Shown: positions 1,639-13,855 of the stretch, piece after piece
How the letters are laid out: each line of letters begins with the position of its first letter
Position numbering within the stretch: position 1 is the stretch's first letter
Origin: a virus
Length of the DNA stretch: 21,263 bases
Strand: one strand, 5' to 3'
IMG/VR virus record: IMGVR_UViG_3300022752_000458
Location: 1-21,263 of that record
Notes under the pieces: generated by a model
What the model was told of the DNA's origin: nothing
What the model saw: only the letters and a program-made list of their open reading frames with translations
Database searches by the model: none
Made by a program: the position numbers and the translations under genes

Positions 1639-1826
1639 CAGAAATAGAGTTTTTAAAGAAACAAAACGACGAGTACCGCCAGCAGGCGGTAGACAGGCTT
1701 TGTACGGGCGCAGCTAAAGACTATGCCGAGTACCGAGAGTTGGTGGGGGTGATTCGAGGTCTTGACCACGCCAACTTAACACTTCAAGACTTCGCTAAAC
1801 GAATGGAGCAATTAGACAATGAGTGA
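1635..1826 (+). CDS. Small hypothetical protein (63 aa)
   Basis: The start overlaps the portal stop in an ATGA junction and the 3' end overlaps the next gene by 8 bases, so it is probably translationally coupled. The product is charged and mostly helical, with no membrane segment or recognisable motif. The middle region (AAKDYAEYRELVGVIRGL) looks like an amphipathic helix. It may be a small head-assembly factor or chaperonin partner, but the sequence gives no function. Confidence 0.7.
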   Translation: MTEIEFLKKQNDEYRQQAVDRLCTGAAKDYAEYRELVGVIRGLDHANLTLQDFAKRMEQLDNE

Positions 1827-2220
1827 AATCCTCGTAAGCCAAGACGGTGCAACATCAACTGTCCTTCCCGAAACGGCTGAAGAGAAAGCACGGCAGGTTC
1901 CCGATCCCGCCACCTTCCATCTTCTGTGTGTTTTACCTGAAATCGATGAGTCCTACGACAGCGGCATAGTGAAAGCTAGTCAGACGCTGCACTACGAGGA
2001 GGTCCTCTCCCCTGTGTTGTATGTCGTCAAGATGGGACCTGATGCGTACAAAGATGAAAAGCGTTTCCCCAGTGGTGCGTCATGCAAGACAGGGGACTTT
2101 GTGTTGGTTAGACCCAACACCGGTACACGGATCAAGATTCATGGCAAAGAGTTCCGCATCATCAACGATGACTCGGTCGAAGCTGTGGTTCAAGACCCGC
2201 GTGGTATTTCCCGTGCATAA
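1819..2220 (+). CDS. GroES-like phage co-chaperonin
   Basis: Residues 33-126 follow the GroES/Cpn10 layout. A first beta-strand (FHLLCVLPEIDE) is followed by a mobile-loop-like stretch near 48-63, a strand with GPDAYKDEKRFPSGASCKTG that matches the Cpn10 pattern before the conserved 'GD.V', and then GDFVLVRPNTGTRIKIHGKE and a final strand NDDSVEAVV. It has about 30 extra N-terminal residues compared with bacterial GroES. In T4 and related phages such proteins (gp31) replace host GroES so that GroEL can fold the major capsid protein. The location between portal and scaffold genes supports the same role here. The mobile loop lacks the standard hydrophobic tripeptide, as is usual in divergent phage versions. 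The gene overlaps its upstream neighbour by 8 bases. Confidence 0.82.
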   Translation: MSEILVSQDGATSTVLPETAEEKARQVPDPATFHLLCVLPEIDESYDSGIVKASQTLHYEEVLSPVLYVVKMGPDAYKDEKRFPSGASCKTGDFVLVRPNTGTRIKIHGKEFRIINDDSVEAVVQDPRGISRA

Positions 2221-3202: not shown

Positions 3203-3666
3203 CTGAACAGACTAGAACCAATCGTATTGCAGAATCTCGCGCTCGTGAAGTGCGCCCAATAACCAAATGGGCACCCGCTGAACTTCTACCCGAAGTTGAC
3301 GAAGAGCCGGGCTATGCGTTTCGCTGGATTCGTACCAGCATGATGGGTCAAGCTGATGCCAAGAATGTATCTTCAAAATTCCGCGAGGGCTGGGAGCCTG
3401 TGAAGGCTTCGGATCACCCTGAGGCGCAGCTTTTTGCCGAACCCAATAGTCGGTTTAAAGATGCGATCGAAGTAGGTGGACTCATCCTCTGTAAAACCCC
3501 GGTGGAGTTTGTCGGTCAGCGTAGTCAGTTTTTCCAAAATATTACTGATTCGCAAATTGATTCGGTAGACAACACCTACATGCGCGAGAGCGATGCCCGT
3601 ATGCCGCTGTTTAATGAGCGCCGCTCAACAGTGACTAAGGGACGAGCTTTCGGTTCTGGTTCTTAA
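3199..3666 (+). CDS. Conserved hypothetical head-region protein (155 aa)
   Basis: The gene overlaps the scaffold stop by four bases (ATGA). The N-terminus is basic (RTNRIAESRAREVRPITKW). It is followed by a globular region with alternating hydrophobic residues (EVGGLILCKTPVEFVGQRSQ) and a polar C-terminus rich in Arg, Ser and Gly. There is no signal peptide or membrane segment. Proteins of this type sit just before the capsid genes in related uncultured podoviruses (from memory), so a virion or assembly role is likely. A specific function is not visible. Confidence 0.7.
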   Translation: MTEQTRTNRIAESRAREVRPITKWAPAELLPEVDEEPGYAFRWIRTSMMGQADAKNVSSKFREGWEPVKASDHPEAQLFAEPNSRFKDAIEVGGLILCKTPVEFVGQRSQFFQNITDSQIDSVDNTYMRESDARMPLFNERRSTVTKGRAFGSGS

Positions 3667-4290: not shown

Positions 4291-5199
4291 ATGGCAATTT
4301 CACGCGCACAACTACTTAAAGAACTGCTCCCCGGCCTGAACGCTTTGTTCGGCTTGCAGTATGCGACCTACCCTGAAGAGCACAAAGAAATCTACGAAAC
4401 CGAGACTTCTGAGCGTTCCTTTGAGGAAGAGACCAAACTGTCGGGCTTCTCTGCCGCACCGGTCAAGAACGAAGGTTCTGCGATCCAGTACGACAACGCC
4501 CAGGAAGCATGGACTGCTCGCTACAACCATGAAACCATCGCAATGGGCTTCGCCATCACGGAAGAAGCAGTGGAAGACAACTTGTATGACTCGTTGTCCA
4601 GCCGCTACACCAAATCGCTGGCTCGCGGTATGGCTTACACCAAACAGGTCAAAGCTGCCTTTGTGTTGAACAATGCGTTCAACACCACGGTGACTTACGG
4701 TGACGGCGTGAGCTTATGCTCTACCGCCCACCCGTTGATCTCTGGTGGAACCAACAGCAATCGCCCGGCTACCGCCGCTGACTTGAATGAGACTTCGTTG
4801 GAAAACGCAGTTATTCAGATCGCTGCATGGACGGACGAGCGTGGCCTGTTGATCGCAGCCAAGCCCAAGAAGTTGATTGTTCCTCCTGCTCTGATGTTCG
4901 TTGCAACTCGTCTCTTGGAGACCGAATTGCGTGTTGGCACGACCGACAACGACATCAACGCGTTGAAGAACAACGGCTCTATCCCCCAGGGCTACTGTGT
5001 CAACCACTACCTGACCGACACCAATGCGTGGTTCCTGTCTACCGACGTGCCTAACGGGCTGAAGCACTTTGTGCGTATGCCTTTGGACACCAAGATGGAT
5101 GGTGACTTCGACACTGGTAACGTCCGTTACAAGGCCCGTGAGCGTTATAGCTTCGGCGTGTCAGACCCCTTGGGTATCTTCGGGTCCCCTGGCGCTTGA
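4291..5199 (+). CDS. Major capsid protein (HK97 fold, Mu gpT-like)
   Basis: The 302-residue product reads as a major head subunit of the Mu gpT-like branch of the HK97 fold. The N-terminal arm contains FEEETKLSGFSAAPVKNEGS. An E-loop-like region with YNHETIAMGFAITEEAVEDN follows, and then a long helix with SLARGMAYTKQVKAAFVLNN. The A-domain region has the usual 'STAHPL' segment and KPKKLIVPPALMFVATRLLE. The C-terminal part (VRYKARERYSFGVSDPLGIF) is the conserved P-domain strand and ending. Length is normal for the family. An AAGGAG site lies just upstream, and a strong terminator directly follows the stop, as expected for the most abundant late product. Confidence 0.88.
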   Translation: MAISRAQLLKELLPGLNALFGLQYATYPEEHKEIYETETSERSFEEETKLSGFSAAPVKNEGSAIQYDNAQEAWTARYNHETIAMGFAITEEAVEDNLYDSLSSRYTKSLARGMAYTKQVKAAFVLNNAFNTTVTYGDGVSLCSTAHPLISGGTNSNRPATAADLNETSLENAVIQIAAWTDERGLLIAAKPKKLIVPPALMFVATRLLETELRVGTTDNDINALKNNGSIPQGYCVNHYLTDTNAWFLSTDVPNGLKHFVRMPLDTKMDGDFDTGNVRYKARERYSFGVSDPLGIFGSPGA

Positions 5200-5903: not shown

Positions 5904-6185
5904 ATGGCAATGCAAACAGACGTTAAGTCAGCGGCTGCGGCTGCTGGAGCGACTACTACTATCTTTGGTGGGCCCGCCCGCATTAAAGGTATATCAATCA
6001 GTTACTCAACGGGCGCAACGGTTGTATTAAATGACGGAACAGGCGGGACAGCTATGTTTTCATTCACTGCGCCAGCGGCGGCGGGTTCTATCTACATTCT
6101 GTTCCCTGGAGAAGGTATTAAATGTAATACCAACATCTCCGCAGTGGTAGGCGCAACAACAACCGCAGTGGTGTTCTATGGCTGA
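5904..6185 (+). CDS. Small putative virion protein (93 aa)
   Basis: The N-terminus is Ala-rich (VKSAAAAAGATTTIFGGPAR). It is followed by alternating hydrophobic strands (IKGISISYSTGATVVLNDGT and SIYILFPGEGIKC), which suggests a compact beta protein. The pattern resembles small capsid-surface or decoration-type proteins, but I do not recognise a family. The gene overlaps the glycosyltransferase gene by eight bases, so the two are probably coupled. Confidence 0.68.
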   Translation: MAMQTDVKSAAAAAGATTTIFGGPARIKGISISYSTGATVVLNDGTGGTAMFSFTAPAAAGSIYILFPGEGIKCNTNISAVVGATTTAVVFYG

Positions 6186-6921
6186 TAAGAGCTTCAACTT
6201 GGTGGGACGCAAGCTTATGATTGCGATCCCTTGTTACGATGGTAAGGTCAACATCAAGACCTGCTTTGCCATAGCGCAACTTGTCCCCAAGTTGGACAAG
6301 ATGGGTGTCCAGATTCATCTGGTGCACCTGTCTGGCTGCTCAATCATCACCAAGGCTCGGAACAAGCTGGTGATGAACTTCATGGACTCAGACTGCACTG
6401 ATCTGCTGTTTGTAGACGCTGATGTGGTCATCAATGTGGACGCTGTAACCCGCTTGCTGGCTCTGTCTACAGACCGGGACATTGTGGCTGGGACGTACCC
6501 CCGCAGGGCAGCAGATGCCAAGTTCTTCCTAGACTTCTATCTGGATAAACACAACCAGTTGGAGTTTGACGAGAACGGCCTAATGCGGGTTGAGAGCGTG
6601 GCAACCGGGTTCATGTTAATCCGCCGCCATGTCATTGAGTCCCTGATCGCAGCTCACCCTGAGTGGAAGTACAAAGGCGACGGCGACGGCGCAGATGAGT
6701 ACGCGGTCTTTGACTTTGCTATTGTCAATGGAGAGTACATTGGGGAAGACTACCTGTTCTGCCGCAGGGCCAGAGAGCACGGGTACAAGATTTACCTCGA
6801 CCCAATGATCAGCTTGCCGCACATCGGCACACAAGAATTCACCCGTAACTTTGAGCAAGACGCTTTGCAACCACTCCTCAAGGAGCATGCAAAACCGCAC
6901 TTGAAAGTAGCAAATGGCTAA
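6178..6921 (+). CDS. Glycosyltransferase, GT-A fold (GT2-like)
   Basis: The 247-residue protein opens with a Rossmann-like strand (LMIAIPCYDG, 13-22). A helix with ITKARNKLV follows, then the strand DLLFVDADV, whose Asp-Ala-Asp at 80-82 fits the metal/nucleotide-sugar site of GT-A enzymes. Further on come AGTYPRR and VATGFMLIRR, and then GEDYLFCRRAREHGYKIYLD with Glu-Asp at 190-191, the usual position of the catalytic base. His 215 in LPHIG matches the late metal-binding His of the family. It should transfer a sugar to an unknown acceptor, such as a virion protein, DNA or host polysaccharide. Placement directly after the head genes favours a virion target, but this is an inference. Confidence 0.82.
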   Translation: MADKSFNLVGRKLMIAIPCYDGKVNIKTCFAIAQLVPKLDKMGVQIHLVHLSGCSIITKARNKLVMNFMDSDCTDLLFVDADVVINVDAVTRLLALSTDRDIVAGTYPRRAADAKFFLDFYLDKHNQLEFDENGLMRVESVATGFMLIRRHVIESLIAAHPEWKYKGDGDGADEYAVFDFAIVNGEYIGEDYLFCRRAREHGYKIYLDPMISLPHIGTQEFTRNFEQDALQPLLKEHAKPHLKVANG

Positions 6922-7168
6922 GTCACCAGCATGGCAACGCAAAGAAGGCAAATCGGAGAAGGGCGGCTTGAACGCCAAAGGCCGAGCTTCCTACAACAAA
7001 GCCAATCCCGGCAAGCCGGGCTTGAAAGCACCGCAGCCCGAGGGCGGCAGCAGGCGCGACTCTTTCTGTGCAAGGATGACTGGGATGAAGAAAAAGCTCA
7101 CATCCGAGAAGACAGCCAAAGACCCAAACAGCCGGATTAACAAGAGCCTTCGGGCTTGGAAGTGTTGA
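6914..7168 (+). CDS. Small basic conserved phage protein (DUF6321-like)
   Basis: The 84-residue product is strongly basic and Lys/Gly/Ser-rich. It starts with AWQRKEGKSEKGGLNAKGRA and continues with PEGGSRRDSFCARMTGMKKK and DPNSRINKSLRAWKC. This pattern (WQRKEGK...GGLN.KGR.SYN...RR.SF..R) is one I associate with a widespread small protein of marine and freshwater phages, named DUF6321 as I recall. The charge suggests nucleic-acid or capsid-interior binding, but no function is proven. It overlaps the glycosyltransferase gene by eight bases. Confidence 0.75.
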   Translation: MAKSPAWQRKEGKSEKGGLNAKGRASYNKANPGKPGLKAPQPEGGSRRDSFCARMTGMKKKLTSEKTAKDPNSRINKSLRAWKC

Positions 7169-7169
7169 G

Positions 7170-7418
7170 ATGGAACTGATGATATGGAATCTCTTGCTGA
7201 CTACATTGCTCGGGTTGCTAGGTTGGAATCTGAGGGAGAAGTCAGCAGAGTTGGCAAGGATCACAATCCTTCTGAACAAGACTCGGGAAGAGCTTCCCAA
7301 AGAGTACGTGACGAAGGTAGACTTGCACACGGATATCAACAGAATAATGGACAGGTTGGACAGGTTAGAGAACAAAATTGACCTGTATATGAAAGAACAA
7401 CGCAGTGCTATTAGCTAA
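7170..7418 (+). CDS. Single-TM coiled-coil protein (82 aa)
   Basis: One hydrophobic N-terminal helix at about 4-20 (MIWNLLLTTLLGLLGW) is followed by a long charged heptad-like region to the end (INRIMDRLDRLENKIDLYMK). The topology, a short N-terminal anchor followed by a coiled coil, resembles i-spanins and other small phage membrane proteins. It is far from the lysis genes, however, and no partner lipoprotein is visible. It could also be a virion-ejection or superinfection factor. The start lies one base after the upstream stop. Confidence 0.7.
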   Translation: MELMIWNLLLTTLLGLLGWNLREKSAELARITILLNKTREELPKEYVTKVDLHTDINRIMDRLDRLENKIDLYMKEQRSAIS

Positions 7419-7427
7419 GGAGCAATC

Positions 7428-8096
7428 ATGAAGAAGCGCAAATTTAAATTTGATGATGGCGGTGATGTCGGTCTTGACGTTATGGATGAGACAGGCGCAG
7501 AGTCAAAATCAAAACGCAATCCAGAAACGGGTGAGTTGTATAACCCGGTGATGAAACGCAACAAAGAAACAGGTGAGATGTACACCTCAGAGATGAGTCC
7601 AAAAGCATCGAAGCCTCGTAGCAAGCCTGCGGCTAAACCTGCCCCTAAAGCTACTCCTAAAGCTGAAGAGCCCGCTGGTCAGATTCCTGGTCAGAGTGCA
7701 AAGGCTCCGGAGTCTTCTGGTGGTGAACGTAGCACTGAGACCAGCCGTAACATTGAAGCTGCTCTTGGAGCCACAGGTCTTGGCCTTGGCGCAGCAGCTG
7801 CCTTTAAATCACTCAAAGCACTGAAAGCTGCCCGAGATGCTAAGAAGCCGATGGAAACAGTGGCTAAACAAGCTTCGGAAGTCGCCGCTAAAGGTCGTGA
7901 AGAAGTTACCAACCCCCTGATGTGGATGGCTGGACCCAAGAAAGCCAGTAAATTTAAAGAACCCAAAAAAGGTATGTCTGAAGCTGATACTTCGGGTGGA
8001 GCAATTGGGTACAAGCGTGGCGGTGGAGTCTCCTCCGCATCATCTCGTGCTGATGGTATTGCCCAGCGTGGTAGGACCAAAGGTCGGATGTACTAA
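7428..8096 (+). CDS. Basic modular protein with C-terminal RADGIA tag (222 aa)
   Basis: The N-terminus is basic (MKKRKFKFDDGG). A tandem repeat of about 14 residues follows: KRNPETGELYNPVM, then KRNKETGEMYTSEM. Next come a Lys/Pro/Ala linker (about 60-85), a Gly/Ala hydrophobic segment (ALGATGLGLGAAAAFKSL, about 112-129) and a charged helix. The last 17 or so residues include SSRADGIAQRGRTKGRM, which recurs at the ends of the next two proteins. A Lys-Arg-Gly-Gly-Gly motif precedes the tag. No enzyme motif is seen. A role as a minor virion or ejected protein is possible but inferred. The stop overlaps the next ATG as TAATG. Confidence 0.72.
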   Translation: MKKRKFKFDDGGDVGLDVMDETGAESKSKRNPETGELYNPVMKRNKETGEMYTSEMSPKASKPRSKPAAKPAPKATPKAEEPAGQIPGQSAKAPESSGGERSTETSRNIEAALGATGLGLGAAAAFKSLKALKAARDAKKPMETVAKQASEVAAKGREEVTNPLMWMAGPKKASKFKEPKKGMSEADTSGGAIGYKRGGGVSSASSRADGIAQRGRTKGRMY

Positions 8097-8527
8097 TGCC
8101 TAGCTCATCGGGTAAGCAGCACAGGTTCATGGAGGCGGTGGCCCACAACCCATCGTTTGCCAAGAAAGTAGGAGTCCCACAGTCCGTGGGAAAAGAGTTC
8201 AGCAACGCCGATAAAGGCAAAACTTTTAGAAGAGGTGGTGATATGGCAGGCAAAATGAACCCCGGCATGATGGCCATGATGGCCAAGAAAAAATCTACAA
8301 AGATGGCCAGTGGCGGTATGCCCATGGTTATGAAAGACGGCAAGAAAATGCCAGCTTTTGCTGCTGATGGCGAAGGCAAAATGAAACACGGCGGCATGGC
8401 TAAAAAGATGATGGGCGGCGGCATGGCCTACGCCAAAGGTGGCTCTGCATCTAGTCGCGCTGATGGTATTGCTCAAAAAGGCAAGACCAAAGGCAAGATG
8501 ATGGCTAAGGGCGGTCGCGCCTGCTAA
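8096..8527 (+). CDS. Met- and Gly-rich basic protein with RADGIA tag (143 aa)
   Basis: The N-terminal 45 residues form a conserved-looking block (GKQHRFMEAVAHNPSFAKKV, then GVPQSVGKEFSNADKG) seen, from memory, in other phage small proteins. The middle is a Met/Lys/Gly-rich low-complexity region; I count 20 Met in 143 residues. It contains KMNPGMMAMMAKKKSTKM and GKMKHGGMAKKMMGGGM. The C-terminus has YAKGG followed by SSRADGIAQKGKTKGKM, the tag shared with both neighbours, and a short extra tail with a Cys. The function is unknown. Basic charge fits binding to DNA or the inner capsid surface. Confidence 0.75.
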   Translation: MPSSSGKQHRFMEAVAHNPSFAKKVGVPQSVGKEFSNADKGKTFRRGGDMAGKMNPGMMAMMAKKKSTKMASGGMPMVMKDGKKMPAFAADGEGKMKHGGMAKKMMGGGMAYAKGGSASSRADGIAQKGKTKGKMMAKGGRAC

Positions 8528-8538
8528 AGGGGTAAATC

Positions 8539-8985
8539 ATGGCTGATAGAAAAACCGCACGGCAAATAGCACGGGACATAAACGATGAGCAAAACATGCC
8601 GGTTACAAAAAAGTTTGTTGATACTGTGGGTTCACGGATAGACAAAATTGAAAACGAACCGGGCAGAGCAATTGCTACTGGATTGGGCTTGGCTGCTATG
8701 GGGCCGACAATAATAGCGGACCTTGCTCGAACTGCTGTGACAGGACGCAAGCCTAGAAGTAACGAAGATTTGAATGAATTGACCCGTGAGGTTTCTCGTG
8801 GGCAAGGGCAAGAAAAAGAAAAGTCTGGCACTGAAAAAGCGCGGGAAGCCGCTAGACAGATGCGGGAAGAAGAAAAGTACACCAAGGAAAGGCCAGAGCA
8901 GAAGTACGCCAAAGGCGGCATGACTGCTTCCAAACGTGCAGATGGCATTGCTACCAAGGGTAAAACCCGTGGGAAGTTTGTATGA
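8539..8985 (+). CDS. Protein with hydrophobic segment and RADGIA tag (148 aa)
   Basis: The N-terminal helix is charged (RKTARQIARDINDEQNMPVT). A Gly/Ala hydrophobic segment lies at about 49-66 (ATGLGLAAMGPTIIADLA) and recalls the GLGLGAA segment of the tagged protein encoded at 7428. A Glu/Lys/Arg-rich helix follows. The C-terminus has YAKGG followed by SKRADGIATKGKTRGKF. It is the third consecutive protein with this tag. The hydrophobic stretch could insert in a membrane or pack as a helix pair. No function is recognised. The stop overlaps the next start by four bases (ATGA). Confidence 0.72.
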   Translation: MADRKTARQIARDINDEQNMPVTKKFVDTVGSRIDKIENEPGRAIATGLGLAAMGPTIIADLARTAVTGRKPRSNEDLNELTREVSRGQGQEKEKSGTEKAREAARQMREEEKYTKERPEQKYAKGGMTASKRADGIATKGKTRGKFV

Positions 8986-10813: not shown

Positions 10814-11005
10814 ATGGACAAGAAAGATATGGCACAAGACAAGGCTATGATTAAAAAAGCCTTTTCACAGCACGACGCCCAAAAACACAAGGGTGGCAAG
10901 GGCACTGCCTTGAAACTTAAAAAAGGTGGGCCCACCAGCATGGACCGTAAAACATACGGGAAGAATCTTTCTCGCGCAATGAACCAGAAATCTGGGAGCA
11001 AGTAA
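10814..11005 (+). CDS. Tiny basic protein (63 aa)
   Basis: The product is Lys-rich with no hydrophobic core. It starts with MDKKDMAQDKAMIKKAF and later has LKLKKGGPTSMDRKTYGKNL and SRAMNQ. The KKGG element recalls the GG motifs of the proteins encoded at 7428-9257. An AGGAG site at 10804-10808 is well placed. The stop overlaps the next ATG as TAATG. It probably belongs to the same class of small virion- or DNA-associated proteins, but no function can be read. Confidence 0.72.
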   Translation: MDKKDMAQDKAMIKKAFSQHDAQKHKGGKGTALKLKKGGPTSMDRKTYGKNLSRAMNQKSGSK

Positions 11006-11256
11006 TGGGTAAATTCAGCAAAAAGATGATGGGTAAAGAGGTTGGTTCTGCCAGCGTCTATGCTCAACCGCACACCATGGACGGCAAACCCGGTGTACCT
11101 ATGCGCCCCAAAAACCCCATCAGCCGCAAAGCTGATTGGACTCCCATGGACGGCGTGAGCATTGGCATCAATGACGAAGTCAAAACCAGCGGTATCAAGA
11201 TGCGTGGTACTGGCGCGGCCACCAAAGGTGTGATGTCACGAGGCCCAATGGGTTGA
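11005..11256 (+). CDS. Small conserved hypothetical protein (83 aa)
   Basis: The product is basic and rich in Gly, Lys, Met and Pro. Its middle reads YAQPHTMDGKPGVPMRPKNP and its C-terminus IKMRGTGAATKGVMSRGPMG. The ending (GTGAATKG) is loosely similar to the Gly/Lys-rich tags of the upstream proteins but lacks RADGIA. There is no membrane segment. It is packed between the zinc-ribbon group and the second adaptor gene, which suggests a connector-assembly or virion role without proof. Confidence 0.7.
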   Translation: MGKFSKKMMGKEVGSASVYAQPHTMDGKPGVPMRPKNPISRKADWTPMDGVSIGINDEVKTSGIKMRGTGAATKGVMSRGPMG

Positions 11257-13027: not shown

Positions 13028-13855
13028 ATGTCTCTTGGCTGGGGTGACGGTACATGGAGTAGCGGCCCTTGGGGTGGAGGGACGGTATATCCAACAGGCA
13101 ATGAGGCAAATGGCTTTGTTGGATCAGTCTCGCCTGAACTGATTCTTGCCCTAACGGGCGTGTCAGCTTCTGGTGCAGTTGGGACGATGGCTCCCAGCAC
13201 ATCAGAAGGCGAGGATGGCGATGTAGCTTTTGGTGAGGTTGGCAGTGTAGGGACAGCCCTAGAGATTGCCCTGTTTGGTGTTACTGCGGCTGGGGCGGTT
13301 GGAACGGTTGACCACGGCAAAGAGATTGCCCTGAGTGGCAACTTGGCTACCGGCGATGACGGGACTGTGGCGGTAGGGACTCGTTCTCTGGCGTTGACGG
13401 GCAATGCAGCATCTGGGGCGGTTGGAACCGTTATTGGGGACAAAGCAACGGCCCTGACTGGGGTTTCAGCATCTGGGGCGGTTGGCACAGTTGTCCAGAG
13501 CGCACAGGTTGAACTGACCGGGAATTTTGCGTCTGGCTTCCCCGGCGGGGTTATTGTCCCAATGAACAGTAACCAAGCGGATGGGGCGGTTGGAACAGTT
13601 GTCAAAGAGGTGTCGATTGCCCTGACAGGTGTCTCAGCAGATGCGGCAGTTGGAACCATGTCGATGGCGGCAAGGACATTTGCCCTGACAGGTGTAAACG
13701 CAACAGGATCGGTGGGCAGTGTGATTGCCGTCTACTGGAAGATCATAGATGACACGCAGATACCTTCGTGGCAAAATATCAACAACCCGCAGACACCGGG
13801 CTGGGGAGATGTATCAGATGTACAGACTCCAGCTTGGGCAGAAGTCGTAACTTGA
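13028..13855 (+). CDS. Repeat-rich tail/fibre-associated protein (275 aa)
   Basis: The N-terminus is Trp/Gly-rich (GWGDGTWSSGPWGGG). Residues 28-234 hold about ten copies of a roughly 20-residue unit, with consensus ALTGVSASGAVGTV plus a variable linker; clear copies begin near 41, 81, 101, 122, 142, 162, 198 and 219. The C-terminus has three exact-spaced 11-residue units at 241-273 with the pattern QxPxWxxV (QIPSWQNI, QTPGWGDV, QTPAWAEV). Such regular beta-like repeats fit a fibrous or surface tail protein. No adhesion or enzyme domain is recognised. The gene lies just before the fibre genes and is likely to vary in repeat number. Confidence 0.75.
   Translation: MSLGWGDGTWSSGPWGGGTVYPTGNEANGFVGSVSPELILALTGVSASGAVGTMAPSTSEGEDGDVAFGEVGSVGTALEIALFGVTAAGAVGTVDHGKEIALSGNLATGDDGTVAVGTRSLALTGNAASGAVGTVIGDKATALTGVSASGAVGTVVQSAQVELTGNFASGFPGGVIVPMNSNQADGAVGTVVKEVSIALTGVSADAAVGTMSMAARTFALTGVNATGSVGSVIAVYWKIIDDTQIPSWQNINNPQTPGWGDVSDVQTPAWAEVVT
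13109..13729 (+). repeat. Approx. 60-bp coding repeats
   Basis: These bases encode the roughly 20-residue repeat units of the 13028 gene. Two adjacent units keep an identical 19-base core, CAGCATCTGGGGCGGTTGG, at 13407-13425 and 13467-13485, exactly 60 bases apart. Other units are diverged in DNA but retained in protein. Confidence 0.75.

What the first reader, a model, noticed from the sequence alone, without database searches (positions are those of the whole stretch)
8019..8982. Same C-terminal tag (GG ... RADGIA.KG.T.GK) on three consecutive unrelated proteins
Seen: SSRADGIAQRGRTKGRM, SSRADGIAQKGKTKGKM and SKRADGIATKGKTRGKF end three neighbouring proteins whose remaining parts differ, each preceded by a Gly-Gly motif (YAKGG in two). 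DNA copies at 8037-8090 and 8447-8500 use different synonymous codons, including Ser TCT versus AGT, so the tag is kept by selection on protein rather than by recent copying. It could be a docking, packaging or processing signal for virion or ejected proteins, possibly an undescribed sorting system.
Basis: partly seen in the sequence, partly recalled or inferred. Interest (0 to 1): 0.78.

Follow-up and report, generated by a model that had tools for sequence, protein, structure and literature searches.

The report
C-terminal address tag on phage proteins
A group of uncultivated water phages ends a fast-changing set of small, otherwise unrelated proteins with the same short peptide, and a sister group of phages uses a different peptide on the same kind of protein, which suggests an undescribed address label that loads proteins into the virus particle.

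Summary
It is a protein-level C-terminal tag, R[AG]DG[ICV]A-x-x-GKT[KR]G-xx(x), after a Gly-Gly linker. Of 242 distinct tagged proteins from viral contigs, 177 end exactly three residues after the motif and 240 within fifteen. Their remaining parts fall into about 60-120 groups with no known domain. The tag occurs only in one island of a conserved head-gene cassette (120 of 120 pattern-hit loci). Bodies turn over far faster than the capsid protein.

Two natural experiments reject plain paralogy. The conserved DUF6321 protein, untagged in the window, carries the tag as an extension in 18 of 94 homologues. Sister phages (capsid protein 63-66% identical) use another tag, [RK]GQGxVxRxKxT, and one homologous body carries tag 1 in one lineage and tag 2 in the other.

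Best explanation: a lineage-specific docking signal that brings variable cargo to a head component, working like T4 capsid-targeting or encapsulin cargo-loading peptides but not a shown member of either. Virion location is indirect: a DUF6321 module ends a protein recorded as a virion protein of cyanophage S-SCSM1. Partner and packaging are unproven.

The parts
7428..8096 (+). Gene A (222 aa): variable, Cys-free body with a C-terminal tag; residues 1-69 differ from relatives that share residues 70-222
8019..8093 (+). Tag of A: GGGVSSASS + RADGIAQRGRTKGRMY, at the very C-terminus
8096..8527 (+). Gene B (143 aa): N-terminal KQHRFM module (PHROG 16759) plus Gly/Lys/Met-rich middle plus tag; its start overlaps the stop of A (TAATG)
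8429..8503 (+). Tag of B: YAKGGSASS + RADGIAQKGKTKGKMM
8504..8524 (+). Extension after the tag of B: AKGGRAC, typical of B-type proteins, most of which end in Cys
8539..8985 (+). Gene C (148 aa): variable body with a C-terminal tag; its end overlaps the next gene (ATGA)
8905..8982 (+). Tag of C: YAKGGMTASK + RADGIATKGKTRGKFV, at the very C-terminus
6914..7168 (+). DUF6321 protein (PF19846), untagged here and ending SLRAWKC*; homologues in the same position carry the tag as an extension
4291..5199 (+). Major capsid protein; the conserved gene (71-100% identical in the compared tag-bearing loci) whose divergence goes with tag type
11005..11256 (+). p83: conserved cassette protein whose C-terminus RGTGAATKGVMSRGPMG resembles the tag

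Best explanation
The tag is a short, flexible C-terminal recognition peptide on a Gly-Gly linker. During late expression it brings a hypervariable set of small proteins to a conserved component of the assembling phage head (capsid shell, portal, scaffold or another cassette protein), so that they become virion cargo. Shown: the tag is C-terminal, modular, under purifying selection, attached to dozens of unrelated bodies, confined to one island of one head cassette, gained or lost on a conserved domain, and replaced by a different tag in sister phages with a more distant capsid. Inferred: that the partner is encoded in the head cassette, that tagged proteins end up in the virion, and that they act after ejection (for example against host defences, which would explain the fast turnover).
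For: (1) Position: 177 of 242 distinct tagged ORFs end exactly 3 residues after the motif (2.5 expected for uniform placement) and 240 within 15. (2) Bodies: 234 proteins give 84-120 BLAST groups or 64 phmmer groups. An alignment of 106 representatives has its invariant columns in the tag only and 7% mean column identity. (3) Synonymous differences are near saturation both within genomes (pS 0.66) and between them (0.68), with pN 0.21-0.23. (4) In 23 long records all tag hits fall in one island of 0.4-4.8 kb, inside the cassette portal-GroES-scaffold-capsid-DUF6321-island-adaptor; 120 of 120 pattern-hit loci contain cassette families; 118 of 119 islands have at least one tag or tag variant. 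(5) Tag gain/loss: 18 of 94 DUF6321 homologues carry the tag after ...SLRAWNC, the core tree needing 7 changes, at least 4 on starred branches. (6) Tag type follows the capsid: of 38 loci found with the second tag, 35 hold cassette families, with capsid 63-66% identical wherever the capsid gene is held. (7) Tag swap: body YRKPTEKE...EARAYEAE carries tag 1 in L184-L186 and tag 2 in phage DSL-LC04 and others, 49-55% identical over 67 residues, best E 1e-20. (8) Turnover: at capsid identity of 98% or more, loci share 50% of tagged bodies; at 90-95%, 10%; at 80-90%, about 4%. (9) DUF6321 is the C-terminal module of QFG06285.1, annotated 'virion protein' in S-SCSM1, a phage whose virion proteins were identified by mass spectrometry (PMC9602691). 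(10) In the model of protein C the tag region scores about pLDDT 53, consistent with a flexible peptide.
Against: No tagged protein has been seen in a virion. No partner was identified; complexes could not be modelled. Within a genome tags are only slightly more alike than between genomes (76.3% versus 73.2%), so co-adaptation is visible between lineages but hardly within them. Tagged genes could serve late lysis or replication functions, since neighbours such as the membrane protein at 7170-7415 are not clearly structural. The S-SCSM1 link is to an untagged relative of one module, and the paper's list of detected proteins was not read.
Confidence: 0.58

Rival explanations
1. Ordinary paralogy: the proteins are diverged copies of one ancestor and the tag is its most conserved part.
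For: Many bodies share a Lys/Gly-rich style and an N-terminal KxKRYxxGG-like start, and phmmer joins up to 96 of 234 bodies into one group.
Against: The tag is also on the KQHRFM family and, as an extension, on DUF6321, whose core is complete without it. One body carries a different tag in sister phages. Bodies range from a few residues to over 400 with no common alignment outside the tag.
Confidence: 0.05
2. The tag is a basic tail that binds DNA or RNA without a specific protein partner, for example to neutralise packaged DNA.
For: The tag carries 4-6 Lys/Arg, Lys and Arg exchange freely at two positions, and bodies are Lys/Arg-rich, 18.7% against 10.7% in larger cassette proteins.
Against: Asp, Gly, Ala and Thr positions are as fixed as the charge, and the distance to the C-terminus is fixed, which a charge tail would not need. 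Sister lineages keep a different specific sequence.
Confidence: 0.15
3. Processing signal: a protease cuts at the Gly-Gly and the tag is a removed propeptide or trafficking signal.
For: Gly-Gly upstream of the tag is nearly invariant; T4 capsid-targeting peptides are cut off by the head protease (PMC7697877).
Against: Gly-Gly recurs all through these proteins as a linker; none of the cassette proteins scanned was identified as a stand-alone head protease, though not every one was scanned; the last residues are conserved in type, as expected for a retained end.
Confidence: 0.1
4. Address for a host target or a phage replication site during late infection, not for the virion.
For: The proteins vary fast, as expected for proteins that fight the host.
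Against: In 23 long records the tag is never found outside the head-cassette island, and its type follows the capsid lineage.
Confidence: 0.1

Closest known systems
Capsid targeting sequence (CTS) of phage T4 internal proteins
   Same: A short terminal peptide shared by variable proteins; in T4 it is enough to bring unrelated proteins into the head (PMC7697877, PMC5694885).
   Different: The T4 CTS is N-terminal, about 10-20 residues, and is removed by the head protease; this tag is C-terminal, unrelated in sequence, and no cleavage is shown.
Encapsulin cargo-loading peptide (CLP)
   Same: A short, usually C-terminal peptide conserved on different cargo proteins encoded beside the shell gene, which docks in a luminal pocket of an HK97-fold shell and is sufficient for loading (PMC7355545).
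   Different: Different sequence; here the shell is a phage capsid, docking to it is only a hypothesis, and the cargo is hypervariable and without known domains.
Bacterial C-terminal sorting signals (LPXTG, PEP-CTERM, GlyGly-CTERM)
   Same: C-terminal, shared by unrelated proteins.
   Different: Those carry a membrane helix and a basic cluster (own knowledge); this tag has no hydrophobic helix and is viral. One LPXTG-type model was matched weakly by one protein in NCBIfam (E 0.07) and one in Pfam (E 7e-4).
DUF6321 (PF19846) and the KQHRFM module (PHROG 16759)
   Same: Small recurring modules of phage proteins, present in this cassette and in cyanomyoviruses, pelagiphages and phiKZ-like phages.
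   Different: They are larger conserved domains; the tag is a peptide of 16 residues with a linker that can be added to either.

Membership tests
T4 capsid targeting sequence | Short peptide shared by otherwise different proteins | tested here: met
   64-120 body groups, one tag
T4 capsid targeting sequence | At the N-terminus | tested here: not met
   C-terminal in 240 of 242
T4 capsid targeting sequence | Removed by the head maturation protease | tested here: inconclusive
   None of the cassette proteins scanned was identified as a stand-alone protease, but not every one was scanned and cleavage itself cannot be tested here
T4 capsid targeting sequence | Tagged proteins lie inside the virion; tag sufficient for packaging | not testable with these tools
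   Only indirect: DUF6321 module in an annotated S-SCSM1 virion protein
Encapsulin cargo-loading peptide | C-terminal peptide on different cargo genes beside an HK97-type shell gene | tested here: met
   Island lies in the same cassette as the capsid gene; capsid matched to phage major head protein families; its HK97 fold is taken from general knowledge of tailed phages
Encapsulin cargo-loading peptide | Docks in a pocket on the inner face of the shell | not testable with these tools
   No complex modelling available; the tag profile matches no solved structure
Encapsulin cargo-loading peptide | Sequence of known cargo-loading peptides | not tested
   No such profile was run; the tag matched no family covering it in Pfam, PHROGs or NCBIfam
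LPXTG / PEP-CTERM / GlyGly-CTERM sorting signals | Match to curated sorting-signal models | tested here: not met
   106 proteins against NCBIfam and Pfam: one weak LPXTG hit in each library
Paralogous protein family | Homology runs through the full length | tested here: not met

The most novel reading that the evidence does not exclude
Tailed phages of this group possess a lineage-specific C-terminal address code: each capsid lineage reads its own tag, and any protein that acquires the tag, by fusion or exchange of its body, becomes virion cargo. The head thereby acts as a delivery vehicle with freely exchangeable contents.
Probability: 0.38. Interest if true: 0.9.

Novelty: new variant of a known kind. 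Interest (0 to 1): 0.78.

Why it matters
Terminal peptides that send proteins into a capsid are documented for T4 and encapsulins. This would be a third and independent case, C-terminal, widespread in viral contigs, with at least two tag types. It would give a sequence handle for finding virion cargo proteins, which have no recognisable domains, and candidates for delivered counter-defence proteins. The lineage-specific tags offer a ready specificity test and possibly a way to load chosen proteins into phage heads.

Tried and rejected
tblastn of tag peptides against cultured phages gave nothing, although a profile search later found a divergent tag in MinM2 and Pag-Yong1, so those empty answers were a limit of the method. 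Searches with p83 found no convincing cultured relative. The tag profile matched no solved structure and the capsid and adaptor have no sequence relative there. The DUF6321 model had no useful match among solved structures. Literature searches for the motif, DUF6321 and C-terminal motifs of virion proteins returned nothing relevant. Recent gene conversion between tags was rejected by saturated synonymous differences. Chance was rejected. My first ORF caller had an ineffective length filter (and the gene set behind); long ORFs were unaffected because they were taken longest first, but the island content was recounted with a corrected caller, and the untagged-ORF counts are not used. pN is biased low because tags were picked by motif; pS is not.

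Full report
What is in the window. Three adjacent genes, A (7428-8096), B (8096-8527) and C (8539-8985), carry the motif RADGIA-x-[RK]-G-[RK]-T-[RK]-G near their C-termini, each after a Gly-Gly. A degenerate pattern for it matches exactly three times in the window, with none expected in shuffles. In A and C the motif block closes the protein; in B seven more residues, AKGGRAC, follow. A and B overlap at TAATG, and C overlaps the next gene at ATGA, so the genes look translationally coupled to their neighbours (sequence). The window is a virus record of 21,263 bases. A 62,438-base IMG/VR contig encodes the same three proteins identically; it also holds terminase, family A DNA polymerase and SNF2-type helicase genes.

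How common and where in the protein. Six-frame reading of all loci gave 242 distinct closed ORFs with the motif: 177 end exactly three residues after it and 240 within fifteen, against 2.5 and 39.6 expected for random placement. Those with a longer end carry a short extension of the type ...GG..C or ...CGGG.... A matching scan of 84,980 bacterial and archaeal species genomes gave five stretches. Three of them lie on contigs with this phage cassette (L207, L208, L210), one is a chance hit and one looks like a misjoined contig. The tag belongs to phages.

It is a tag and not a domain of paralogues. With the tag and linker removed, 234 proteins fall into 84-120 groups by BLAST and 64 by phmmer. 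In an alignment of 106 representatives the invariant columns are all in the tag and mean column identity is 7%. Pfam, PHROGs and NCBIfam have no family covering the tag; the only consistent hits are to the KQHRFM module of B-type proteins. Synonymous differences between tags are near saturation and equal within and between genomes (pS 0.66 and 0.68) while pN is about 0.2. So the copies are old and held by selection; pN is biased low by selecting on the motif. Tags within one genome are only slightly more alike than tags of different genomes (76.3% versus 73.2%).

Genomic setting. In 23 long records the tag hits (two to ten per record) lie in one island of 0.4-4.8 kb. The island sits in a conserved order: portal, GroES-like protein, scaffold-position protein, capsid, cement-like protein, DUF6321, membrane protein, island, p91, p77, SU10-type adaptor, p129, p83, second adaptor. 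All 120 loci found by the tag pattern hold at least one cassette family, and 70 hold six or more. In 119 islands delimited by DUF6321 and p91, 118 have a tag or variant; 204 ORFs carry the strict tag and 100 a variant. The rest are mostly the membrane protein and a recurring 58-residue family.

Fast turnover. Loci whose capsid proteins are at least 98% identical share on average 50% of tagged bodies; at 95-98%, 29%; at 90-95%, 10%; at 80-90%, about 4%. L129 and L132 are about 96% identical in DNA on both sides of the island yet carry different tagged bodies.

First natural experiment: tag gain or loss. DUF6321 is 84 residues in the window, ends SLRAWKC and has no tag. In 18 of 94 homologues (14 distinct) the protein continues, for example AWNC-AEGG-YVNSADGMAQRGKTRGKMY in L156, whose core is about 94-95% identical to the window's. 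A DNA tree of the core needs seven changes of state, at least four on starred branches. The direction of change was not inferred.

Second natural experiment: tag swap. The cultured phage DSL-LC04 (capsid 65% identical) has no RADG tag but a protein ending YAKGGLVTSKGQGRVIRSKKTRIC. A scan for that ending found 38 stretches; almost all are C-terminal, 3 residues from the end, after a Gly-Gly or similar, on several different bodies including two per contig in L235 and L237. Of these loci, 35 hold families of the same cassette, with capsids 63-66% identical to the window's wherever the capsid gene is held. The body of the DSL-LC04 protein is 55% identical over 67 residues (best E about 1e-20) to tag-1 proteins of L184-L186; the alignment continues through YAKGG and the tags differ right after it. 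Pag-Yong1 and MinM2 (capsid 73-74% identical) have one divergent form, GRDGCAKRGRTKGRFI. Tag type therefore goes with capsid lineage.

Link to virions. DUF6321 is found in 513 cultured phage records, mostly cyanophages. In cyanophage S-SCSM1 it is the C-terminal module of a 517-residue protein, QFG06285.1, annotated 'virion protein'. The paper on that phage reports mass spectrometry of purified particles with 45 detected proteins (PMC9602691); I did not see its protein list. PHROG families that begin with the KQHRFM module are labelled virion structural protein. These are indirect arguments.

Mechanism. The tag region of C scores about pLDDT 53 in the model, consistent with a flexible peptide, though the alignment is poor outside the tag. 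A short C-terminal peptide on unrelated cargo, encoded beside an HK97-type shell gene, is how encapsulins are loaded (PMC7355545); a short N-terminal peptide does this in T4 (PMC7697877, PMC5694885). The best reading is that this tag docks to a head component of its own lineage and loads variable proteins into the particle. What is shown: C-terminal, modular, selected, head-cassette-bound, lineage-specific. What is inferred: the partner, packaging and later delivery. Rivals are a nucleic-acid-binding tail, a processing signal and a host-directed address; plain paralogy is rejected.

Novelty. It works like known loading peptides but is not shown to belong to either family: T4 CTS fails on position, and encapsulin docking could not be tested. 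No description of the tag was found in the held literature, which is incomplete.

Noticed in passing
window 11005-11256 (p83): Its C-terminus KMRGTGAATKGVMSRGPMG resembles the tag (R-x-x-G-x-A-x-K-G); homologues in other loci keep RG[TAN]GAATKG.xARGPMA, so p83 may be a fixed member of the same tag superfamily.
   Followed up: partly
bodies of 234 tagged proteins; B-type proteins: Bodies contain 13 Cys in 32,030 residues, yet 107 of 234 tagged proteins and 59 of 66 B-type proteins end in Cys, and DUF6321 also ends in Cys. Unexplained.
   Followed up: partly
window 8096-8240 (KQHRFM module): The first 42 residues of B match 58-residue proteins of phiKZ-like jumbo phages (PA7) and a 52-residue protein beside the probable portal gene of Stenotrophomonas phage BUCT555, 71-76% identical.
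   Followed up: partly
window 1819-2220: A GroES-like co-chaperonin gene lies inside the head operon, next to the scaffold-position gene, and recurs in cultured relatives.
   Followed up: no
window 6178-6921: A glycosyltransferase-like gene (PHROG 1574 and 12406) sits between the cement-like gene and DUF6321, present in only some relatives.
   Followed up: no
window 13028-13855: 275-residue protein built of repeats of the type ALTGVSASGAVGTV; probably a repetitive virion or tail protein.
   Followed up: no
L140, L148, L156, L011, L042, L191: Some tag variants end early or differently (...RGKTRA*...RGKTKYKIY*...RTKCKTY*), and two proteins (L071, L113) end ...[KR]GWGIARG.RKAK.., possibly a third tag form.
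   Followed up: partly
L155, island region near 3264: A 159-residue ORF that looks like a homing endonuclease lies in the island, a possible agent of island exchange.
   Followed up: no
L211 (Patulibacter MAG, contig JALRCL010000652.1): An acyltransferase-like ORF runs straight into a tag near the contig end with no cassette genes present: probably a misassembly or phage contamination in the MAG.
   Followed up: partly
OQ594354.1, OL906435.1, PP438419.1: Phages recorded for three different cyanobacterial hosts (MinM2, Pag-Yong1, Pra-JY27) have equal length (65,014) and equal capsid and DUF6321 scores, so they may be one phage or an unrecognised contaminant.
   Followed up: no
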